A stretch of DNA of 39,314 nucleotides, taken from Lentilactobacillus farraginis DSM 18382 = JCM 14108 (GTDB lineage: Bacteria > Bacillota > Bacilli > Lactobacillales > Lactobacillaceae). The translations under genes were made by a program, and so were the position numbers. The DNA lies in the NCBI RefSeq assembly GCF_000583655.1, contig NZ_BAKI01000025.1, positions 1-39,314 of the forward strand, given 5' to 3'. Numbering within the stretch: position 1 is the stretch's first letter; each line of letters begins with the position of its first letter. Positions 1 through 37,342 of the stretch are shown here, in pieces. The notes beneath the pieces were generated by a model. It was not told the origin of the DNA. It ran no database searches and saw nothing but the letters and a program-made list of their open reading frames with translations.

Positions 1-189
1 TTTCAGCAGATAGTTCATGTCATATTCGCCAACGAACCGACTGGCCGGATTGTTTTCATACCGCTGATTGGCCATGGCTAACATGTGATTCCAGACAAAT
101 CGATCATTGCCAAACATTTGCCACAATAAATTGATTTGCGCTCGGTTGGGGTATAAACGTAGTTTAATCCCTTTAACTACTGTCGTCAT
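1..189 (-). CDS. tnpB: TnpB RNA-guided nuclease, N-terminal fragment cut by window edge
   Basis: The 63 visible residues match the start of the complete TnpB at 32744-33904 (MTTVVKGIKLRLYPNQ) almost perfectly; one visible change is Met for Leu near residue 25. The start codon is ATG at 189-187, preceded by AGGAGG at good spacing. The catalytic RuvC half lies outside the window, so it cannot be said whether this copy is intact. Known role of the family: an RNA-guided DNA endonuclease that helps IS200/IS605-type elements persist. Confidence 0.85.
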   Translation of the reverse strand, partial: MTTVVKGIKLRLYPNRAQINLLWQMFGNDRFVWNHMLAMANQRYENNPASRFVGEYDMNYLLK

Positions 190-443
190 ATGGGCCTCCT
201 CTCTTTACTTTACTGACTGATCTTGCTAATTAAGATTTTTGATCATGACCGGTCTCTTGCCAGTAATGTGCTTTTAATCGCGGATCCCGATAAGCGGTCA
301 TTTAGTTAATCAATAGAAACTTAGCTTAACTATTATAACATATGGTTATTGTTGATACACATATATATTTTAGAATATTTTCAATGTTTATTGATTCGAT
401 AATTATTAGAACCGCTTTTTAAATGCGAAAAGGAGCAATTCAT

Positions 444-463
444 CACGTCCTTAAAAGAACGTG
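444..463. repeat. Subterminal hairpin of the TnpB-element left end, copy A
   Basis: CACGTCCTTAAAAGAACGTG can fold as CACGT/ACGTG plus CTT/AAG with one C-A mismatch. The same 20 bases occur at 34152-34171 and 37309-37328, each about 14-15 bases inside an ATATC junction. Subterminal hairpins of this sort are what the TnpA transposase recognises in the IS200/IS605 family; that role is inferred here. Confidence 0.75.
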
Positions 464-517
464 TTTCCTTGCCCCTATATCAAAAAATTTCATTTTTAAA
501 ATTTGGAGGGTTTCTTT

Positions 518-3938: not shown

Positions 3939-3990
3939 AAAAATCGGGATATCACAACGTTTTTATTTGTCGTTGATATCCCGATTTTTT
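3939..3990. terminator. Bidirectional terminator between pepI and the next gene
   Basis: AAATCGGGATATCA and CAACG pair with CGTTG and TATCCCGATTTTTT around a T-rich loop. Both strands carry U-tracts, which suits the convergent genes on each side. Confidence 0.85.
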
Positions 3991-3992
3991 AT

Positions 3993-4376
3993 TTAGCTGG
4001 TTATTTGTTGACGCTTCGGCTTACTTAAGCCATCGCTAATTGCCACGCCAAGCCACAGCGCACCTATGGTAACCACATCCGAAAAACGATCCGGCACGAG
4101 CCAAAGCAGAATGCCGCCGAACACGACCGCCACTATAACCGTGACAGTAGCCGGCTTGGTGGTTCGATTCTTAGGATCATCTTGCGGGTGCTGTCGGCAA
4201 TGGGCCTTTAAAAATACCAGATAGTAAGGAATCCAAAATCCAATGAAAATAACCGGAGGTGCGATTAGCTGAAGCCAACCGTTATCAAGGAGAAGATCGG
4301 CAAGCAAAATAGCCATCATAAATACTATAAAAGGCCAATTTCTCAATAATGCATAACGCCAGTCAAAAGCCACCAT
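3993..4376 (-). CDS. Small integral membrane protein of unknown function
   Basis: About 127 residues, starting at ATG 4376 after GGGAGG. Three or four hydrophobic spans are visible: two near residues 13-55 (FIVFMMAILLADLLL and APPVIFIGFWIPYYLVF) and two near 80-117. A basic polar loop (QHPQDDPKNRTTK) separates them. I recognise no family. Its stop codon is only two bases past the shared terminator that also ends pepI. Confidence 0.7.
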   Translation of the reverse strand: MVAFDWRYALLRNWPFIVFMMAILLADLLLDNGWLQLIAPPVIFIGFWIPYYLVFLKAHCRQHPQDDPKNRTTKPATVTVIVAVVFGGILLWLVPDRFSDVVTIGALWLGVAISDGLSKPKRQQITS

Positions 4377-10124: not shown

Positions 10125-10151
10125 GGCAATCAGTTGAAAAGAGGATCTGTT

Positions 10152-11539
10152 ATGAAAATGACACAAACATTACCGAAAGAATCCGCTGCCTTAACGGATT
10201 CCGAACACATCACCAATAAGGAACGGCTCAGTTACGGCGCCAGTGATTTTGCCTGCAACGTTGCCAACGGCATGGTCGGTACCTACTTAATGTATTACTA
10301 TACCGACGTTTTCGGCCTGGCCGCCGGGGCTATTGGCACCCTATTCTTTATTGCCCGAATTGTTGATGCGATTTCTGGGCCGACATGGGGGATTATGATC
10401 GATCGAACCCACACCCGCTGGGGCAAAAGCCGGCCTTACTTCCTGTGGTTCTCGGTGCCTTACGCCATCTTCTTCATTCTGGCTTTTTCGTCTGTGCCGC
10501 TGGGACCACTCGGTAAATTAATCTGGGCCTACGTCACTTACATTGCAATTGATATTTTGTACCTTGGGATTAATATTCCGATTACTTCTATGCTGCCAAG
10601 CTTAACCGCCAGCCCTCAAGAACGGGTTAAATTCAGTACCGTTCGTCAGGTTCTGGCAACGACCGGCGCAACGCTGATTTCAATCGCTGTTTTGCCAGCC
10701 GTGCAATTGCTGGGAAATGGTAACGATAAGCAGGGCTTTCTTGTAACCGCTATTATTGTCGCCGTCTTAACCGCCTTTCTCCTATTGGTAACCTTTAAAA
10801 ATACCCACGAACGGGTGCACCCAAAACACCAAACCAAGTTGTCACTGAAACAATCAGCCAGCGCCTTAAAAGGCAACTGGCCGTGGATGATTATTTCTTT
10901 AATGTATTTCTTCTTCTGGATCGGGATGCAGACCAAATTACAGGTTACCGTTTACTTCTTTAAGTACAACATGCATAACGCCGATCTGGCCTCGTTCATG
11001 CTCGGATTGCAAGCGTTGTCACTGGTTGTCATTGTCTTTACGCCCTTCCTGACAAAGCACTTTGGCAAAAAAGGGACCATGGTTATTGGCTTGGGACTTT
11101 GTGTCATTAGTCAATTAATCCTGGGTGTCGGTGCTAAAATGATGAACGTGCCAATTTTAGCCGGTGCCACCATTTTAGGCTATTTTGGAAACGGATTCTT
11201 TGCCGGCCTGCTGCCAGTTATGTTGGCTGATACCGTTGACTACGGTGAATGGAAAAACGGCGTCCGGCAGAAGGACTGGTCACCTCGTTCTCAGGGATTG
11301 CTTCCAACCTTGGAATGGGCATGGGTGGCGTTGTAACCGGCTTCCTGCTAAGCATGAATGGCTACGTTGCCAACCACGCTCAAACTTCCCAAGCTCTGAA
11401 CGCCATTGAAATGAACTTCGTTTGGGTACCCTTTATCGGCTTTGGGATTGGCTTGATTCTGATGTACTTCTACAAGTTTGACAAGATGCAGGCAAAAATT
11501 GACGCTGACTTGAAGGCCCGTCATGAAGCTGCCGATTAG
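10152..11539 (+). pseudogene. GPH-family sugar:cation symporter, frameshifted
   Basis: A glycoside-pentoside-hexuronide type (MelB/LacS-like) transporter, probably importing the substrate of the two enzymes encoded upstream. The N-terminal part has ERLSYGASDFACN, YYTDVFGL, RIVDAISGPTWGIMIDRT and about ten membrane spans. The frame breaks at about 11270: TVDYGEWKNGVRQ is followed out of frame by EGLVTSFSGIASN, a conserved GPH segment. Adding one G (CAGAAGG to CAGGAAGG) restores one reading frame of about 462 residues. The start ATG 10152 follows GAGGAT. No phosphotransferase domain is fused. A terminator follows at 11577. Confidence 0.88.
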
Positions 11540-12467: not shown

Positions 12468-14031
12468 TTACAAGGTTTCGTTCTTTGCCCGTTCACGCAA
12501 GCTCAGTTTCTCAACGTTCAAAACTTTATCGACCAAGCCATCATAAAAACTGTTCTCATGGCTGACAATAATCACATTGCCTGGGAACCGGTCAATTGCC
12601 CGCTTCAAAGCTTCTTTGGTTTCTTCGTCCAAATGGTTGGTCGGCTCATCCATAATCAGGAAATTGCTTGGGACAAATTCCATCATCGCCAACTTAACCT
12701 TGGTTTGTTCACCACCGGAAAGCTCATGAATCGGCTTAATCGCGTTTTGCGCATCCAACCCACACTTGGCCAGTTTGGTTCGAATCGTTCGTTGCGTCAG
12801 CTTAGGATACTTATCCGCGATAATCTGCATCGGTGTCATTCGATTATTATCCCACGCCAAGTCCTGACTGAAATAATTAATGATGGCTGATGGTGAAAAT
12901 TTCGCGGTACCGCCCTTGGCCGGCAGCTTCTTCAAAATTGTTTTAATCAAAGTTGACTTACCAACCCCGTTAAAACCGCTAAAGCCCACTTTTTCACCCA
13001 TTGAAATGGTGAAAGTTACCGGTGCCAATAATGGCTTGTTATAACCAACCGACAATTTATCAACTGTCAGTGCTTCATGAGAACCGGTATCTTCATAGGG
13101 GAAGTTAAAGCTGGCGGAAATATTGGTCGAAGGCGGATCAATCTTATCCATATGGGCCAGTTTCTTTTCCCGGGACTTGGCCATCGTTGATTTGGAACCC
13201 GCTTTGTTCTTGCGAATAAAACGCTCGGCCTTTTCAATTTCAACTTGTTGTTTTTCATACTGCTTCTGTTGAAATTCTTCCCGTTCTTTTCGCTGTCGCA
13301 TGGCTTTTTTAAAATTACCCCGATATTTGGTGATTTTGCCAAAAGCAACATTAATAATACAATTGGTAATCCGGTCCAAAAAGTCATAGTCATGGGAGAC
13401 CACCATCGCCGCGCCACTGAAATTGTTCAGATAATCGACCAGCCATTCGATCTGGTTAACATCCAAATAGTTGTTGGCTCATCAAGTAAAATCACATCCG
13501 GATCTGCCAGCAGCATTTTAGCCAAAATAATTTTGGAACGCTGGCCACCTGACATTTTACCAACCAGATGATCACGACCGATGCTGTCCAACCCCAGGCC
13601 AACAACCGTTTGTTCAATTCGGGTATCAATATCGTAGAAGTTGCTGGAATCCAGCTCATCTTGAATCGTCCCGGCACGTTCCAACAATTTATCGTCAGCC
13701 GTCTCGGCATATTTTTCGTATAACTTGGTTAGCGTTTCATTTTTCTTGTACAGATCCGCAAACGCGGTCCGCAGAAATTGAATGAGTGTCAGATCGTCTT
13801 CAATATCGGCATACTGATCCAAGTAGCCGATTTTAATATTTTTTTGCCATTTGATGTCGCCGGATAACGGCAGCTGTGAATCCGTAATGATTTTGATCAG
13901 CGTGGATTTACCAACCCGTTTTGACCGACAACCCCCATATGTTCACCCTTCTCCAGCGTGAATTCGGCATCTTTATACAAATCTTTTTCCGCAAAACTCA
14001 TCGAAAGATTTGAAACTGATAATAGTGGCAA
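12468..14031 (-). pseudogene. ABC-F family ribosome-associated ATPase, with two frameshifts
   Basis: ABC-F proteins have two ATPase domains and no membrane part; they act on the ribosome as translation factors or antibiotic-protection proteins. Joined, this one is about 521 residues, starting at TTG 14031 five bases after GAGGTGA (MPLLSVSNLSMSFAEKD). Domain 1 has Walker A GQNGVGKST, signature MSGGQRSK and Walker B VILLDEPTNYLD. A charged linker follows (near residues 240-320), then domain 2 with GFNGVGKST, LSGGEQTK and FLIMDEPTNHLD. The frame is lost twice: inside the first Walker A (about 13916, GGGG read as GGG on the coding strand) and inside the first Walker B (about 13475, ACCAAC read as ACAAC). 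Each is repaired by one base, so the gene is probably intact in the real genome. Confidence 0.88.
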
Positions 14032-17867: not shown

Positions 17868-18022
17868 GATGGTTGTTCACCCCGTTTGGTTTAAATTTAA
17901 CTAATCTTCTTTATTTTAGCACCTTCGGCCAAGTTACCGATACATACCAGTGATATTGGTTGCATTTCCCCATCAATGCCCCAATAATAAAGATAACTAC
18001 TAAAACGAATTGGAGGACAATT

Positions 18023-19596
18023 ATGCCAACCTTTAAAAACGCCAAGATTTTTCTTGGCACCAACGCAACCAGCTTTGCTTCGGCAATGAACATCACAGAT
18101 GGTGTCGTGACCCACACCGGCGAAACTGCCGAGGTCAGTGATCCGGATGCCATCGATCTTCACGGGAAAACGGTTTTACCAGGCATCATCGATACTCACA
18201 CCCACCCAAAGTACATCGCCGATGCTTTACACGGCGTAGCTGCACACCCCCAAAGGTTAATAGTATTGCCGATATGAAAGCAGCCCTTAAAAAATCCCCG
18301 GCTTATGGTCAGGGGCCGGCTGTCTGGATTGAAGGCTGGGGCTTTGACGAATCCAAGCTGGCTGAACATCGCTCACCAACCGTTGATGATCTGGACGAGG
18401 TTTCCACGACGCAACCGATTTTTATTTACCGCTCCGACTGCCATTCATCGGTTGGCAATTCCAAAGCCCTGACTTTAGCCGGAATCGACGCCAATACGCC
18501 CAACCCGGTTGGCGGGACCATTGGCCATTTTTCAGACGGGCGGCCCAACGGTTACATGAAGGAAGTAGCTGCGACCCAATTACTGATTCAGGCCAAGTCG
18601 GAACAAAGTTATTTGGCCGATGTTGATAATATGGCCAACAGCTCAACACATTACCTAAAAAACGGCATCGTTGGGATTGGCGAATTGATGGGTCGTTTCC
18701 GTCCCTATGATTCCCTGCGACTTTATCAGGATGCCATGGTCGATGGCTTCAAGCCCAAGACCGCGATTTACTACGTTTTCAATGAGTTGATGCCCGGCCA
18801 GGTTATCGAGCCGACTTCCCAGGACCAGCTGCGGATTGCCGGGATTAAAGTTTTTATGGACGGCAGTATTTCCGGTGAAACCGCCTATAACAAGGCCCCG
18901 TATCCAAACGGCAGCCAGGGCGTGCTGTTAACCGATGCCGGTCAACTTAAACAGGCAGTCTGGTACGCGGTCGACCATCACCTCCAATTAGCAGTGCATG
19001 CAATGGGGGATGCCGCTATTCAACTGGTCATCGATGTCACTGCTGATTTAACCCCCTGGTTGACTGACCGGCCGTCGATTCGAATCGAACACGCTTCATT
19101 ACTATCGGATCAAATGCTGAAAGAAATCAACCGGGCCAGGATGAATTATGCCTTGGTCACCCAACCGATTTTCTTCTTTGCCGAAGATGAATCCTATCGC
19201 GCCTACCTCAGTGATGCCCAGTTTAAAACCGCCTACCGGGTTAAATCAATGCTGAATTCAACGGCGCCCATGGCACTGAGTTCAGATGCCCCGTGCACTC
19301 CGTGGGATGAACCCGATAGTCCATTTGTCAACATCTATGCGGCGGTTACCAGAACTGCCGCCAACGGTGACGTTGTCAACGCCAATGAGGCGATCACCGT
19401 TCCGGAAGCCGTCCTCGCCTATACCAATATTGGCGCCCAAGTTGGCGGCTTTACCCATAACGGTCAATTACGACGGGGCTATGCCGGCGATTTCACTGTC
19501 CTTGATCAAGATATCTTCTCGATTCCAGCTGAAAAAATCAAAGATGTTCACGTTGAGCAGACGTGGCTGGCTGGTGAAAAAGTTTATCAAAAGTAA
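18023..19596 (+). pseudogene. YtcJ-like amidohydrolase (Amidohydro_3), frameshifted
   Basis: A metal-dependent hydrolase of the amidohydrolase superfamily, about 524 residues when joined; natural substrates of the YtcJ group are unclear. The start is ATG 18023 with TGGAGGA upstream. The frame breaks at about 18250 in a C run: GVAAHP is followed out of frame by PKVNSIADMKAALKK. One extra C restores it. Metal-site motifs are DTHTHP near residue 55, the His in LAVHAMGDAA, RIEHASLL, and the Asp in SSDAPCTPWD. GWGFDESKL and the closing GDFTVLDQD are also typical of YtcJ-like proteins. Confidence 0.87.
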
Positions 19597-32325: not shown

Positions 32326-32624
32326 TGAATTGGCCTCCTTTGGTACTAAAGCCTGAAAATTGTGATAAACATTGGTTTGATTAATAGATTATTGTTTTTT
32401 TAGAAAGCGCATTCAACTTTATTATAGTCTCACTTTGTAAGTCCCCTAAGAATAAAGCTTCTACAACATGAAAAAAATTTGCTTTTATATCGAATCACCC
32501 TTCTAAACAGATAAAGCTTATCTTATAATATACTAGTAAAGAGGGGGAATGATTATCCAATGAAAAAGATTATTTTTCCATTGGTCGTTTTGCTGACACT
32601 GGGACTGGCATTATCGATCACATT

Positions 32625-32760
32625 GTGAACTACTCGGCCATGAATGACCGCGCTTCTGGGAACACGAAGTAGTATTTAGGCTGTTACATCGGTATGCCGA
32701 ACACCTAACTTACAGAACCCCGCTCTCTTACCATGGCTAGTCCCTAACCAGTAGCTTTTA
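32625..32760 (-). ncRNA. Putative omega RNA (reRNA) of TnpB
   Basis: TnpB guide RNAs arise from the 3' end of tnpB and the right end of the element, with the guide read from the flank. Here the minus strand from the tnpB stop runs through GC-rich foldable sequence to the CGGTCA/TGGCCG hairpin and GAGTAGTTCAC (ending 32625). The guide would begin AATGTGATCGATAATG (from 32624 downward). The exact 5' end is not visible. Confidence 0.6.
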
Positions 32761-33904
32761 AGCCGCGCTTCAGGATATTAACTGCCGCATTAATATCCCG
32801 ATCATGATGGGTTTGGCACTCAGAACACGTCCATTCCCGAATTGCTAAGGGTTTGGCGCCGTCATTGTGCCCGCAAGCTGAGCAGATTCGGGAAGTGTTC
32901 TTAGCACTGACCACCATTAATTGCTTTCCGTACCAGTCACACTTATATTCAAGCATGGTCCGGAATTGATACCAACTGGCGTTAGCAATGGCCTTAGCCA
33001 GGTGGTGATTATGCATCAGATTTTTGGTTTTCAAATCTTCAATCACAATCACATCATACTTCCGAACTAAGGCCGTCGTGAGCTTGTGCAGGTAATCCTT
33101 GCGCTGGTTGGCAATTTTAGCTTGATACCGGGCTTTGGTCATTTTCGCCCGTTGCCAATTTTGGTAATCATTAAGTTCCATCTTAAGCAATTTATGGTGG
33201 TGATTCCATTGGTGCATCGCAACGGTCGCTTGGTGCCTGCGTCGACTGAACTTGGCCTGCCACCGTTGGGCTTGCTTTTTCAGCCACTTAGCATTGAACG
33301 TCCCATACTTCACCCCATTAGAATCAATCGCTAAATCGGAAACGCCCAGGTCTAAACCAATTTTTTGATTGGTCTTGGGCAAGTGATGAACTTCAGTTTC
33401 GACCTGCAGGGAAATATAGTAACGCCCGGTGGCATCGTGACTAATCGTGTAGCGCTTAATTTTACCATTGGCCAAGCGGCCCGTCTTGCTGGTCCGAATA
33501 CTCCCGATTTTCGGCAGTTTTAACCGCCGCTTAGCTTCCACGGTGCAGATTGATTGCCCAGTGTAGGATTGCTTGGCACTACGCCGGGATTTGAACCGGG
33601 GATGGCCACCCCGATGTTGGAATAAGTTCTGATAAGCCAGCGCCAGGTTATGGTTAACCACCAACAAGCTGGTAGCATCACTTAACTTTAAAAAGGGGTA
33701 TTCCTGCTTGAGGGGTTTCAGCAGATAGTTCATGTCATATTCGCCAACGAACCGACTGGCCGGATTGTTTTCATACCGCTGGTTGGCCATGGCTAACATG
33801 TGATTCCAGACAAACCGGTCATTGCCAAACAGTTGCCACAATAAATTGATTTGCGCTTGGTTGGGGTATAAGCGTAGTTTAATCCCTTTAACCACTGTCG
33901 TCAT
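32744..33904 (-). CDS. tnpB: TnpB RNA-guided endonuclease, apparently intact
   Basis: 386 residues. TnpB is the compact ancestor-like relative of Cas12 and cuts DNA next to a short motif under guidance of the omega RNA. The RuvC-like active site is complete: Asp185 in GLDLGVSD, Glu289 in VIVIEDLKT and Asp370 in HDRDINAAVN. The zinc finger has Cys341, Cys344, Cys360 and Cys363 (CSAC...CSEC). The N-terminal start MTTVVKGIKLRLYPNQ is typical. ATG 33904 follows GAGGAGGT; the frame extends upstream without a ribosome site. No frameshift is seen. Confidence 0.93.
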   Translation of the reverse strand: MTTVVKGIKLRLYPNQAQINLLWQLFGNDRFVWNHMLAMANQRYENNPASRFVGEYDMNYLLKPLKQEYPFLKLSDATSLLVVNHNLALAYQNLFQHRGGHPRFKSRRSAKQSYTGQSICTVEAKRRLKLPKIGSIRTSKTGRLANGKIKRYTISHDATGRYYISLQVETEVHHLPKTNQKIGLDLGVSDLAIDSNGVKYGTFNAKWLKKQAQRWQAKFSRRRHQATVAMHQWNHHHKLLKMELNDYQNWQRAKMTKARYQAKIANQRKDYLHKLTTALVRKYDVIVIEDLKTKNLMHNHHLAKAIANASWYQFRTMLEYKCDWYGKQLMVVSAKNTSRICSACGHNDGAKPLAIREWTCSECQTHHDRDINAAVNILKRGLKATG

Positions 33905-34620
33905 CTGGGGACCTCCTCTCTTTACTTTACTAACTGATCTTGCTAATTTGATCATGACCGGTCTATTACCAGTACCGTGCTTTTAATCGCGGATCCGATA
34001 AACGGTCATTTAGTTAATCCATGGAAACTTAGCTTAACCATTATAACATATGGTCATTGTTGATACACACATATATTTTAGAAAGCTTTCAACATTTATT
34101 GATTTGATAATTATTAGAACCGCTTTTTAAATGCAAAAAGGAGCAATTCATCACGTCCTTAAAAGAACGTGTTTCCTTGCCTTATATCAAAAACACCATC
34201 GTCTGCGGATCAAAGGCATCCTTACGTAACAACGCCGGTTTCATTACGTGGCACCTGGTATCAATATGATCAGGCTGGTCATTACTTCATGAAAATGACG
34301 ATCACTAAGTATACCTGGTCCGTTGATTACGCACCACATTACGCAACGACCGTTTCCAGCAAGCGAATCATCCCCACACAAGCATGACGCAACTGGCCTG
34401 CCCTCAGCTCAAGTCGCATGGTTACTGGCAGCTAAAACAAAATCACACCGAATATAGCATGCTTTTAAAACGCGGTTCAATAAAAATTAATCGCCAAAAA
34501 ATCACCGTTTTGAAAAATTACTATCCAAACGCGCCTCAAGCCGTCAGCGTATGGACGACACGTAAAATTCGGTAATGGATGATCCACGCTGACATCCCCT
34601 AAAAGAGTCAACATCATAAA

Positions 34621-34772: not shown

Positions 34773-35706
34773 TTAGCTGCGGGTGCCCCACAGAAACTTA
34801 ATAATCTCATTTTGAACCCGCTTATTCTTGGTTTCAAGATACGGGTGTTTAGCCAGCCGGCCATGGGTGGCAAATTTTTGATAACCGGCAACCTGATTCT
34901 TTAAAATCGAATCCAGCGATAAAACTGAAGTCACCGACACCGTGCCGTCAGAATTTGACCCGTTTTCAACGTTGCCATAAATATTCAAAATATGCGCCTG
35001 ATGTGGGAAATTGCGACGGTTGCGCATTAACAACCGGTACTCGGGATGCTTGATCCTCGGCTGACCGTTTTTCAACAGTCGATTTTGATTTGGATGATCA
35101 TCCACAGTCGACTAAGTTTACCGCTAGTTGGTTGATCCCATTTTCCCCGATCCAAGATACCATCGTACGGCCCGGCAATCAAAACCAGCTTGTTAACCCG
35201 GGGAATTTGCCTTGAATTACCATCCCGCTCACTTTGGGTAACCAACGCGTAAGCACCCATTGAATGACCGATGGCGTTAAAGCTAGTTACGTGATAACGT
35301 TGCTTTAACAGCACCAAAATCTTGTGCAGTTCAGCTGCCTCTTGAAATTCACCAATATAAGCATTGGGGAACTTAACTAAAATCTCTGGTGATTTCTTGG
35401 GATGGGCCGGCAGATGGCCATACATTTTTATCTGGCCGGACGGGCCGACATAAACGTATAATCCCTTTTGGGCCACGCCTTCCCGAATAGCCTTTTTAGC
35501 CAGCGGCATCTGGGAATGCAGCCCGGCGCCCCAGCGTGAACAAATAAAACCGGCGTAGTCGAATGATTGACAGCTACCGTCTTTTGTTGCCTGCTTCGGT
35601 TAGCGTGATTTGCCGACCGGAAAAACAGCCCGGCTGCCGCAAAGATTACAACAATTCCCAAAACCACGCTTACCGTTACTAAAATTTTATTTCGTCTCGT
35701 CATCAT
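34773..35706 (-). pseudogene. DUF915-type secreted alpha/beta hydrolase, with two frameshifts
   Basis: A lactobacillus cell-surface hydrolase type of unknown substrate, about 310 residues when joined. The N-terminal signal anchor is VTVSVVLGIVVIFAAAGLFF. TPVLFVHAGAPG marks the oxyanion loop, although the usual HG is HA here. NAIGHSMGAYALV holds the nucleophile Ser, and VTSVLSLDSIL lies near the acid. The frame breaks at about 35523 (GGGG read as GGG on the coding strand) and about 35108 (one base lost before TVDDHPNQN). ATG 35706 follows GAGGTGG. Both breaks are single-base losses, so an assembly error is likely. Confidence 0.8.
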
Positions 35707-36002: not shown

Positions 36003-37105
36003 TCAGCCAAAGTAACTTCTTGAGAAGGCGTCAACGGCTTTGATGCCTTCCAAGACATCATCGGCAGTTACTTTAAAGCCCATGTTGTGAATGGTTTCGC
36101 CGTCTTGAGTGGTCAGCTCGGCAACTTTTCGTAAATCATCCTCACTGGCATTTTCCAAATGAAGGTCCTTTAGAGTCGTCGGCAGGCCAAAGCGGTGCTC
36201 AAACGTCAGGAATCTAACCAGCCGTTCATCACTGGCACCTTCCAATACCAGGTTCAGCAATGTCCCAAAAGCCACTTTTTGGCCGTGAGACAGTTTGTGA
36301 ACGTCACCTGAAAGCGCGGTTAATCCGTTTTGGAAACTGTGAGCAGCAGCCAACCCAGAGCTTTCGGCCCCAACCCCGCTCAACAAGGTATTGGCTTCCA
36401 CAATATGATCAAGCGCCGGGGTAACCGTGTGATCACCGGCAGCGGCCACTGCTTGGTCGGCATAGTGAAACAGTAGCGCTTCACATCTTTCAGCCAGGGC
36501 CAGACCGGCTTCCGTCTGTTGGGTCTGAAGCGGTAATAAAGTTGTTTCACGAGCTCGGCGAACGCTTTGAGCTTCTACGTTGGTCGATAACGCATCAGCG
36601 ATGCCATCAATCAAAAACTTCACCGGCGCACCGGCAATTACCGACGTATCAACCAAAACCAGATCCGGATTCTTATCATAGAACAGGTACTTCAAGAAAC
36701 TACCGTCCTCGGAGTAAAGGACACTCAATCGGGTACACGGTGAGTCGTTGGAAGCCAGTGTCGGCGTGATAATGATCGGAATTTTCAATTGATCGCCAAC
36801 CGCTTGGTGGTGTCGTTGGTTTTCCCGCCACCAAGTGAAATCACAAATTGGGCGTCGCTCTTAGCGGCAATTTCCTTAATCCGGTCAATTTCTTCCGGTG
36901 AACTTTCACCGCCGAACTGAACATGTTCGATCTTTAAGCCGCCCTTGGTTAGGTAATCGTAGAACCGCTGACCAACCAATCCCCAAACAATATCATCAGT
37001 CAATAAAATTCCGTGATCGCCAAACGGCTTGATATACTTGCTGGCCGTCTTCAATAAATCTTTGCCCTGCACATAGGTCGATGGACTTGCAAATGCTGTT
37101 GTCAT
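36003..37105 (-). pseudogene. gldA: Glycerol dehydrogenase GldA-type enzyme, frameshifted
   Basis: GldA oxidises glycerol to dihydroxyacetone with NAD and needs a metal ion. Joined, it is about 367 residues, the normal size. The NAD site ISLGGGKTNDTTK is near residue 95. Metal ligands are the Asp in DGIADAL, the His in GLAAAHSFQNG and the His in KLSHGQKVAFG. TPTLASNDSPCTRLSVLY is also typical. The frame breaks at about 36803: AAG-CGG-TT should be AAG-GCG-GTT, one G lost on the coding strand, after which LKIPIIITPT continues. ATG 37105 follows GGGAGGA. The enzyme might also act on 1,2-propanediol or hydroxyacetone. Confidence 0.88.
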
Positions 37106-37290: not shown

Positions 37291-37342
37291 GAAAAGAAGG
37301 CAATTCATCACGTCCTTAAAAGAACGTGTTTTCTTACCTTAT
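37291..37342 (-). repeat. Solo left-end remnant of the TnpB element (copy C)
   Basis: The last 50 bases of the element left end are present (GCAATTCATCA, then the 37309-37328 hairpin, then TTATAT), with no tnpB or right end next to it. The flank is again TTTTTGAT on the element strand. Those T residues are also the U-tract of the terminator at 37346-37390. Confidence 0.8.

What the first reader, a model, noticed from the sequence alone, without database searches (positions are those of the whole stretch)
32560..34575. Excision of the TnpB element restores an exported-protein gene in frame and fixes both element ends
Joining base 32624 to base 34186 gives one open frame running from the signal sequence (LGLALSI) into SKTPSSADQRH and RGTWYQYD. 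The premature stop in the 5' part is made only by the first bases of the right end. No target duplication is present, as expected for single-strand IS200/IS605 transposition. On the element strand the left flank ends TTTTTGAT. The bases after the right end, AATGTGATCGATAATG, are those that follow TTGAT in the restored allele, which is the arrangement of motif plus guide target described for ISDra2 TnpB. The locus is thus a natural target and donor joint with a predicted guide.
Basis: partly seen in the sequence, partly recalled or inferred. Interest (0 to 1): 0.72.

Follow-up and report, generated by a model that had tools for sequence, protein, structure and literature searches.

The report
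ISDra2-like TnpB jumping gene, ends mapped
This is a jumping gene of a known kind (IS200/IS605, close to ISDra2) that sits inside a small exported-protein gene of a lactic acid bacterium; sister copies in the same genome show where it begins and ends, and its way of working is already published for relatives.

Summary
In detail: joining 32624 to 34186 gives one open frame from the signal sequence into SKTPSSADQRH…RGTWYQYD, and the premature stop lies inside the element. Twelve right ends in the own genome fix the right end at 32625. Twelve left ends share sequence up to about 34193; the last eight bases (TTTTTGAT in 10 of 12) are assigned to the target site by ISDra2 precedent, by the host frame and by related empty plasmid sites, giving 34185. 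TnpB keeps its RuvC triad and matches ISDra2 TnpB best among natural PDB chains. One TnpA copy with matching ends exists in the genome. The right end covaries as an RNA. This is a tnpB-only IS200/IS605 element, probably mobilised in trans.

Corrections: the restored frame ends after 88 codons with the C-terminal part in another frame, so excision alone would not give a full protein in this assembly (other window genes are frame-split too; sequencing error is plausible). No empty allele was found. Open joined frames across 15 copies are no commoner at the true boundary than at shifted ones. The mechanism is published. The one unusual point is the eight-base motif.

The parts
32625..34185 (-). 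IS200/IS605-type element, tnpB only, 1561 bp
   Evidence: 20 matching places in own genome, the window's own included; end comparison
32744..33955 (-). TnpB, 403 aa as first ATG; RuvC residues D202, E306, D387 by alignment with ISDra2 D191, E278, D361; Zn ribbon CSACGH..CSECQ
   Evidence: Pfam PF07282, PF01385, PF12323; NCBIfam NF040570 above cut-off; 8h1j E 2.9e-56; 8H1J is ISDra2 TnpB with that triad (PMC10097598 passages). Residue counting by eye on the alignment
34143..34185 (-). left end (LE), hairpin CACGTTCTTTTAAGGACGTG at 34152-34171
   Evidence: 12 own copies; shared with the tnpA-tnpB copy on C122
32625..32743 (-). right end (RE) and predicted reRNA/omega RNA scaffold; RE hairpin 32635-32650; ends GAGTAGTTCAC
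   Evidence: alignment A1, 21 sequences; 33 pairs; pair counts with controls
32609..32624 (-). predicted guide AATGTGATCGATAATG (16 nt beyond the RE)
   Evidence: position inferred from ISDra2 reRNA (PMC8612924 passages); no RNA data here
34186..34193 (-). target motif / predicted TAM: TTGAT core (34186-34190), extended TTTTTGAT
   Evidence: positions -8 to -1 conserved in 12 own LE flanks, -9 not
32560..32624 (+). 5' part of the interrupted exported-protein gene (signal sequence)
34186..34387 (+). middle part, in frame with the 5' part after joining; stop 34385-34387
34399..34575 (+). C-terminal part of the same gene in another frame
   Evidence: open frame 34327-34575; weak matches to C-terminal halves of relatives, best E 5e-4

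Best explanation
A tnpB-only member of the ISDra2-like branch of IS200/IS605 inserted as a single strand 3' of TTTTTGAT, without target duplication, into the signal-sequence part of a small exported-protein gene of a Lentilactobacillus-type bacterium. It has no TnpA of its own. Its LE and RE closely resemble those of one tnpA-tnpB copy in the same genome (contig C122), whose TnpA could excise it in trans. TnpB would be guided by an RNA made from the 3' end of tnpB and the RE plus about 16 flanking bases. After excision the joint TTGAT|AATGTGATCGATAATG would be its target, so cutting would favour recopying of the element. Shown: right end, motif, family, uninterrupted TnpB frame, RE covariation, one TnpA copy. 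Well supported but partly by precedent: left end. Inferred: trans-mobilisation, guide RNA, cleavage and homing.
For: 12 own RE copies and 12 own LE copies. LE flank motif at -8..-1 over 12 copies, none in 12 RE flanks. 31 of 570 TTGAT sites in 95,431 bases of own DNA are preceded by TTT, against 11 of 12 LE flanks with T at -8, -7 and -6. Left end at 34185 and not 34193: excluding the eight bases closes the host frame (46 codons instead of 88), and three related L. brevis plasmid alleles without the element keep TTTTTG. TnpB to 8h1j E 2.9e-56 (identified as ISDra2 TnpB). TnpA on C122 to 2xm3 E 1.1e-25 (that 2xm3 is ISDra2 TnpA is recalled), PF01797. RE RNA: 98.1% of 693 cells paired, 10 of 33 pairs with changes on both sides, 0 of 500 shuffles as high, slides 32.6-47.6% paired. 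The joined protein aligns with relatives across the junction in one frame.
Against: No empty allele of this site. Control on joined frames: of 15 delimited copies, 5 have a spanning frame of at least 80 codons at the boundary, but so do 6 with the motif removed and 5 to 7 with shifts of 1-2 bases, so open joined frames in general say nothing; only the homology-backed window frame counts. The junction falls in a variable part of the signal sequence. A second frame break remains. The L. brevis empty alleles carry about six to eight bases between TTTTTG and the RE-side flank that the filled allele lacks, and only 2 of 3 match the RE-side flank exactly; two further relatives (L184, L188) do not show the junction. 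The L. pentosus comparison was not a clean empty site and its LE flank reads TTTTTAA. One near-full own TnpB copy has two stops. No expression data.
Confidence: 0.87

Rival explanations
1. The element is a remnant that no longer moves, with TnpB kept by chance or for a host role.
For: No tnpA in the element; only one Y1 TnpA found in the own genome; partial copies and solo ends exist, many of the partial ones at contig ends; one near-full own TnpB copy has two stops.
Against: The window TnpB is uninterrupted with its triad, and 3 of 4 other near-full own TnpB copies have no stop (C98, C122, C108:18205). Own copies have different flanks. RE pairs covary.
Confidence: 0.2
2. The host gene was already a pseudogene when the element arrived, so nothing functional was interrupted.
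For: A frame break downstream of the insertion separates the C-terminal part. The neighbouring DUF915 gene is also split.
Against: Five other gene pairs in the window are split between overlapping frames: MFS_2, ABC ATPase, amidohydrolase, iron alcohol dehydrogenase, DUF915. That many in 39 kb suggests frame errors in the assembly.
Confidence: 0.35
3. The left end lies at 34193, so that TTTTTGAT belongs to the element.
For: Own-copy alignments run through these eight bases.
Against: The motif varies between copies and lineages (TTTATGAT, GTTTTAAT, TTTATGAG, TTTTTGAC), the host frame closes if it is removed, empty L. brevis alleles keep TTTTTG, and ISDra2 inserts 3' of TTGAT (passages).
Confidence: 0.05

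Closest known systems
ISDra2 of Deinococcus radiodurans (IS200/IS605 family)
   Same: TnpB and TnpA best natural PDB matches (2xm3 as ISDra2 TnpA is recalled); TTGAT next to the LE; no target duplication; RE-derived RNA plus about 16 flanking bases in ISDra2 (PMC8612924 and PMC2806898 passages)
   Different: window copy lacks tnpA; own insertion motif is eight bases, TTTTTGAT, rather than five; the own tnpA-tnpB copy sits at TTTATGAT
tnpA-tnpB copy on contig C122 of the same genome (L131)
   Same: LE 91% over 43 bp, RE 95% over 130 bp, TnpB 93%
   Different: carries a 165-aa Y1 TnpA between LE and tnpB
TnpB elements of Lentilactobacillus hilgardii, L. diolivorans and Levilactobacillus species
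   Same: TnpB 65-84% identical; same RE ending in most
   Different: LE flank differs in detail: TTTATGAG, TTTATTGAT

Membership tests
IS200/IS605, ISDra2-like | tnpA and tnpB in some configuration, or either alone (wording of PMC8612924 passage) | tested here: met
   tnpB alone in this element; no tnpA in it; one Y1 TnpA elsewhere in the genome with matching ends
IS200/IS605, ISDra2-like | TnpB with RuvC triad and Zn ribbon | tested here: met
IS200/IS605, ISDra2-like | no target duplication; insertion 3' of a fixed motif next to the LE | tested here: met
IS200/IS605, ISDra2-like | subterminal hairpins at LE and RE | tested here: met
   RE helix 6: 4 of 6 pairs with changes on both sides; LE hairpin read from the sequence, conserved in the rows; not folded by a tool
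IS200/IS605, ISDra2-like | TTGAT works as TAM for RNA-guided cleavage | not testable with these tools
   motif present in 10 of 12 own LE flanks
IS200/IS605, ISDra2-like | reRNA / omega RNA from the RE with flanking guide | tested here: inconclusive
   structure and covariation seen; no RNA data; no Rfam match at gathering threshold in the window
IS200/IS605, ISDra2-like | precise empty site | tested here: inconclusive
   none at this locus; related L. brevis plasmid alleles only roughly agree

The most novel reading that the evidence does not exclude
The eight-base motif TTTTTGAT, rather than TTGAT, is the true recognition site of this branch. Either TnpA reads three more bases than TnpB, or this TnpB has a longer TAM than the 5-nt maximum reported in one survey (PMC10278001 passage). 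The motif would then shift between lineages (TTTATGAG, TTTATTGAT) together with bases of the LE just before its hairpin (GGAAAC or GAAAAC).
Probability: 0.3. Interest if true: 0.45.

Novelty: new member of a known kind. Interest (0 to 1): 0.3.

Why it matters
One genome's own repeat copies give the right end, target motif and predicted guides of a TnpB element almost to the base without comparing strains. The 12 own right ends with different flanks are a natural set of predicted guides. The longer insertion motif makes it testable whether TnpA and TnpB read the same site.

Tried and rejected
Empty site at this locus: 3' flank DNA in 24 genus genomes (own only), junction pattern with up to 3 mismatches in 24 genomes (no exact match; best 2 mismatches), motif plus guide in the own genome (two hits: the RE joint itself and C96 with two mismatches, motif TTGAC). 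The C96 hit lies in no closed ORF of 100 aa or more and was treated as chance. Synteny: no host-gene match at E up to 1 in the 16 other CHAD loci (15 genomes, about 1.5 kb flanks). L. pentosus plasmid: flanks lie 1.2 kb apart in one relative, not clean. L. brevis plasmid: of 5 relatives opened, 3 show both flanks, with extra bases; 15 of 401 matching records were listed. L. reuteri plasmid: no allele without the element among 15 of 46 records listed; a second L. reuteri record was opened and not used.

Joined frames as general proof of the boundary: rejected by control (5 of 15 at the boundary, 5 to 7 of 15 when shifted, 6 of 15 with the motif removed). The first version of this test (at least 90 codons, 4 of 14, no control) is superseded. 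In one search the ends of L006 were set in the wrong orientation; that row was not used. Link of motif variants to LE bases: read by eye, with two own exceptions; not tested.

Full report
Observation. The element lies on the minus strand. The interrupted gene starts at 32560 and, as read, stops at 32626-32628 within the element. Joining 32624 to 34186 opens the frame for 88 codons. The frame alone is a weak test: shifts by multiples of three are also open.

Organism. The genus is inferred to be Lentilactobacillus: the locus of named L. diolivorans DSM 14421 (L053) and that of G004, a genome of the window's genus (L154), show the same LE and RE flanks. The species was not identified.

Right end. 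The own genome (2.84 Mb, 129 contigs, 94% complete) holds 20 matching places including the window's, several cut by contig ends. Own-copy alignments stop at 32624 or 32625, with two exceptions taken as chance. One search lists 30 RE rows, 12 of them own; L053/L154 and L155/L157 appear to be the same places. 28 of 30 rows end in TTCAC; L137 reads TTTAC and L054 TTCAT. The 12 own RE flanks share no motif.

Left end. There are 12 own LE copies. Their alignments run through TTTTTGAT to about 34193, so copy comparison alone does not separate element from motif. I put the end at 34185 for four reasons: ISDra2 inserts 3' of TTGAT (passages); the motif varies between copies and lineages; removing it closes the host frame (46 against 88 codons); and three L. 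brevis plasmid alleles without the element keep TTTTTG. Own motif counts: T at -8 in 11 of 12, at -7 and -6 in 12, at -5 in 11, at -4 in 12, G at -3 in 11, A at -2 and T at -1 in 12; -9 carries little signal. Background: 31 of 570 TTGAT sites in 95,431 bases of own DNA, element copies included, are preceded by TTT.

Family. TnpB carries three Pfam domains. The best PDB hit is an AI-designed nuclease (9yyg); the best natural one is 8h1j, ISDra2 TnpB. One own Y1 TnpA passes the Pfam cut-off; it lies between an LE and a tnpB with matching ends and matches 2xm3 best. In a draft genome other copies may be missing. Of five near-full own TnpB copies, four have no stop and one (C108:12233) has two.

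RNA. 21 of the 30 RE rows were aligned over 151 columns. Nine were left out: L154 (duplicate of L053), the short matches L152, L063, L155, L157, L129, L136 and the second L055 copy, and L133 by oversight. The consensus has 33 pairs. 98.1% of 693 cells pair and 10 pairs have changes on both sides, above all 500 shuffles and all slides. The structure was derived from the same alignment and the sequences are related, so this is support and not proof. Rfam at gathering threshold found nothing in the window.

Host gene. Relatives occur in 52 of 301 family genomes, the own one included, at 24-48% identity apart from the own locus. Those aligned are small proteins with a signal-like start and an LRGTW-like motif. 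The joined protein aligns with most of them across the junction, and the downstream frame weakly matches C-terminal halves of some (best E 5e-4). No Pfam family matched. In this assembly the gene is therefore broken twice. Five other window genes are split between frames, so an assembly error is plausible. Intact relatives exist.

Empty sites. None at this locus. For a L. brevis plasmid element with the same RE (L179), three of five opened relatives without it show both flanks: CTAATTTTTG is kept on the LE side, AAGGCTAG follows exactly in two of three on the RE side, but six to eight further bases stand between. These are not exact predicted joints.

Control that went against a first impression. 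Joined frames of at least 80 codons span the boundary in 5 of 15 delimited copies, against 6 of 15 with the motif removed and 5 to 7 of 15 with shifts of one or two bases. Open joined frames in the other copies are therefore no evidence.

Literature. PMC8612924 and PMC2806898 (passages) describe TTGAT, single-strand excision and the donor joint; PMC8612924 adds the approximately 16-nt flanking guide and the donor joint as TnpB target. PMC10097598 (passages) gives the structure and triad. PMC10278001 (passages) reports TAMs of at most 5 nt among 27 active of 59 orthologs. PMC11870625 (abstract and outline) reports gene-drive behaviour on plasmids. Searches for TnpB with Lentilactobacillus (1 paper) and with Lactobacillus, IS605 and TAM (4 papers) gave listings only, whose titles do not name this element; the texts were not read, so no claim is made that it is undescribed.

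Verdict. A new member of a known kind, with the right end firm and the left end well supported. Confidence in the explanation was lowered slightly (0.90 to 0.87) after the left-end point and the negative frame control. The point worth a bench test is the eight-base motif.

Noticed in passing
window 37292-37342 (minus strand): Solo left end (92% identical over 51 bp) next to TTTTTGAT with no tnpB and no right end found; a second solo LE lies on own contig C55. A 58-bp LE stretch occurs in 70 plasmid records, 67 at 90-95% identity. Of two opened, one (L175) shows it between an IS30 transposase and an APC permease without tnpB, the other (L176) is the LE of a TnpB element.
   Followed up: partly
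window 1-473: Left part of another copy of the same element, cut by the contig end, with a stop in its tnpB part.
   Followed up: partly
L131 (own contig C122), about 3949-4341: The tnpA-tnpB copy abuts an exported-protein-like ORF that runs into its right end; joining the flanks gives a 162-codon frame, but the control shows such frames are common.
   Followed up: partly
window 10134-11539, 12468-13822, 17960-19596, 34773-35706, 36003-37105: Five genes are split between overlapping frames, suggesting frame errors in this assembly.
   Followed up: partly
L203, L209, L211, L214, L131 and others: Copies with TTTATGA next to the LE read GAAAAC before the LE hairpin, those with TTTTTGA mostly GGAAAC; two own copies (L002, window 37342) are exceptions.
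   Followed up: no
L205 (same place as L053, L. diolivorans): The LE hairpin is extended into a nearly perfect long palindrome.
   Followed up: no
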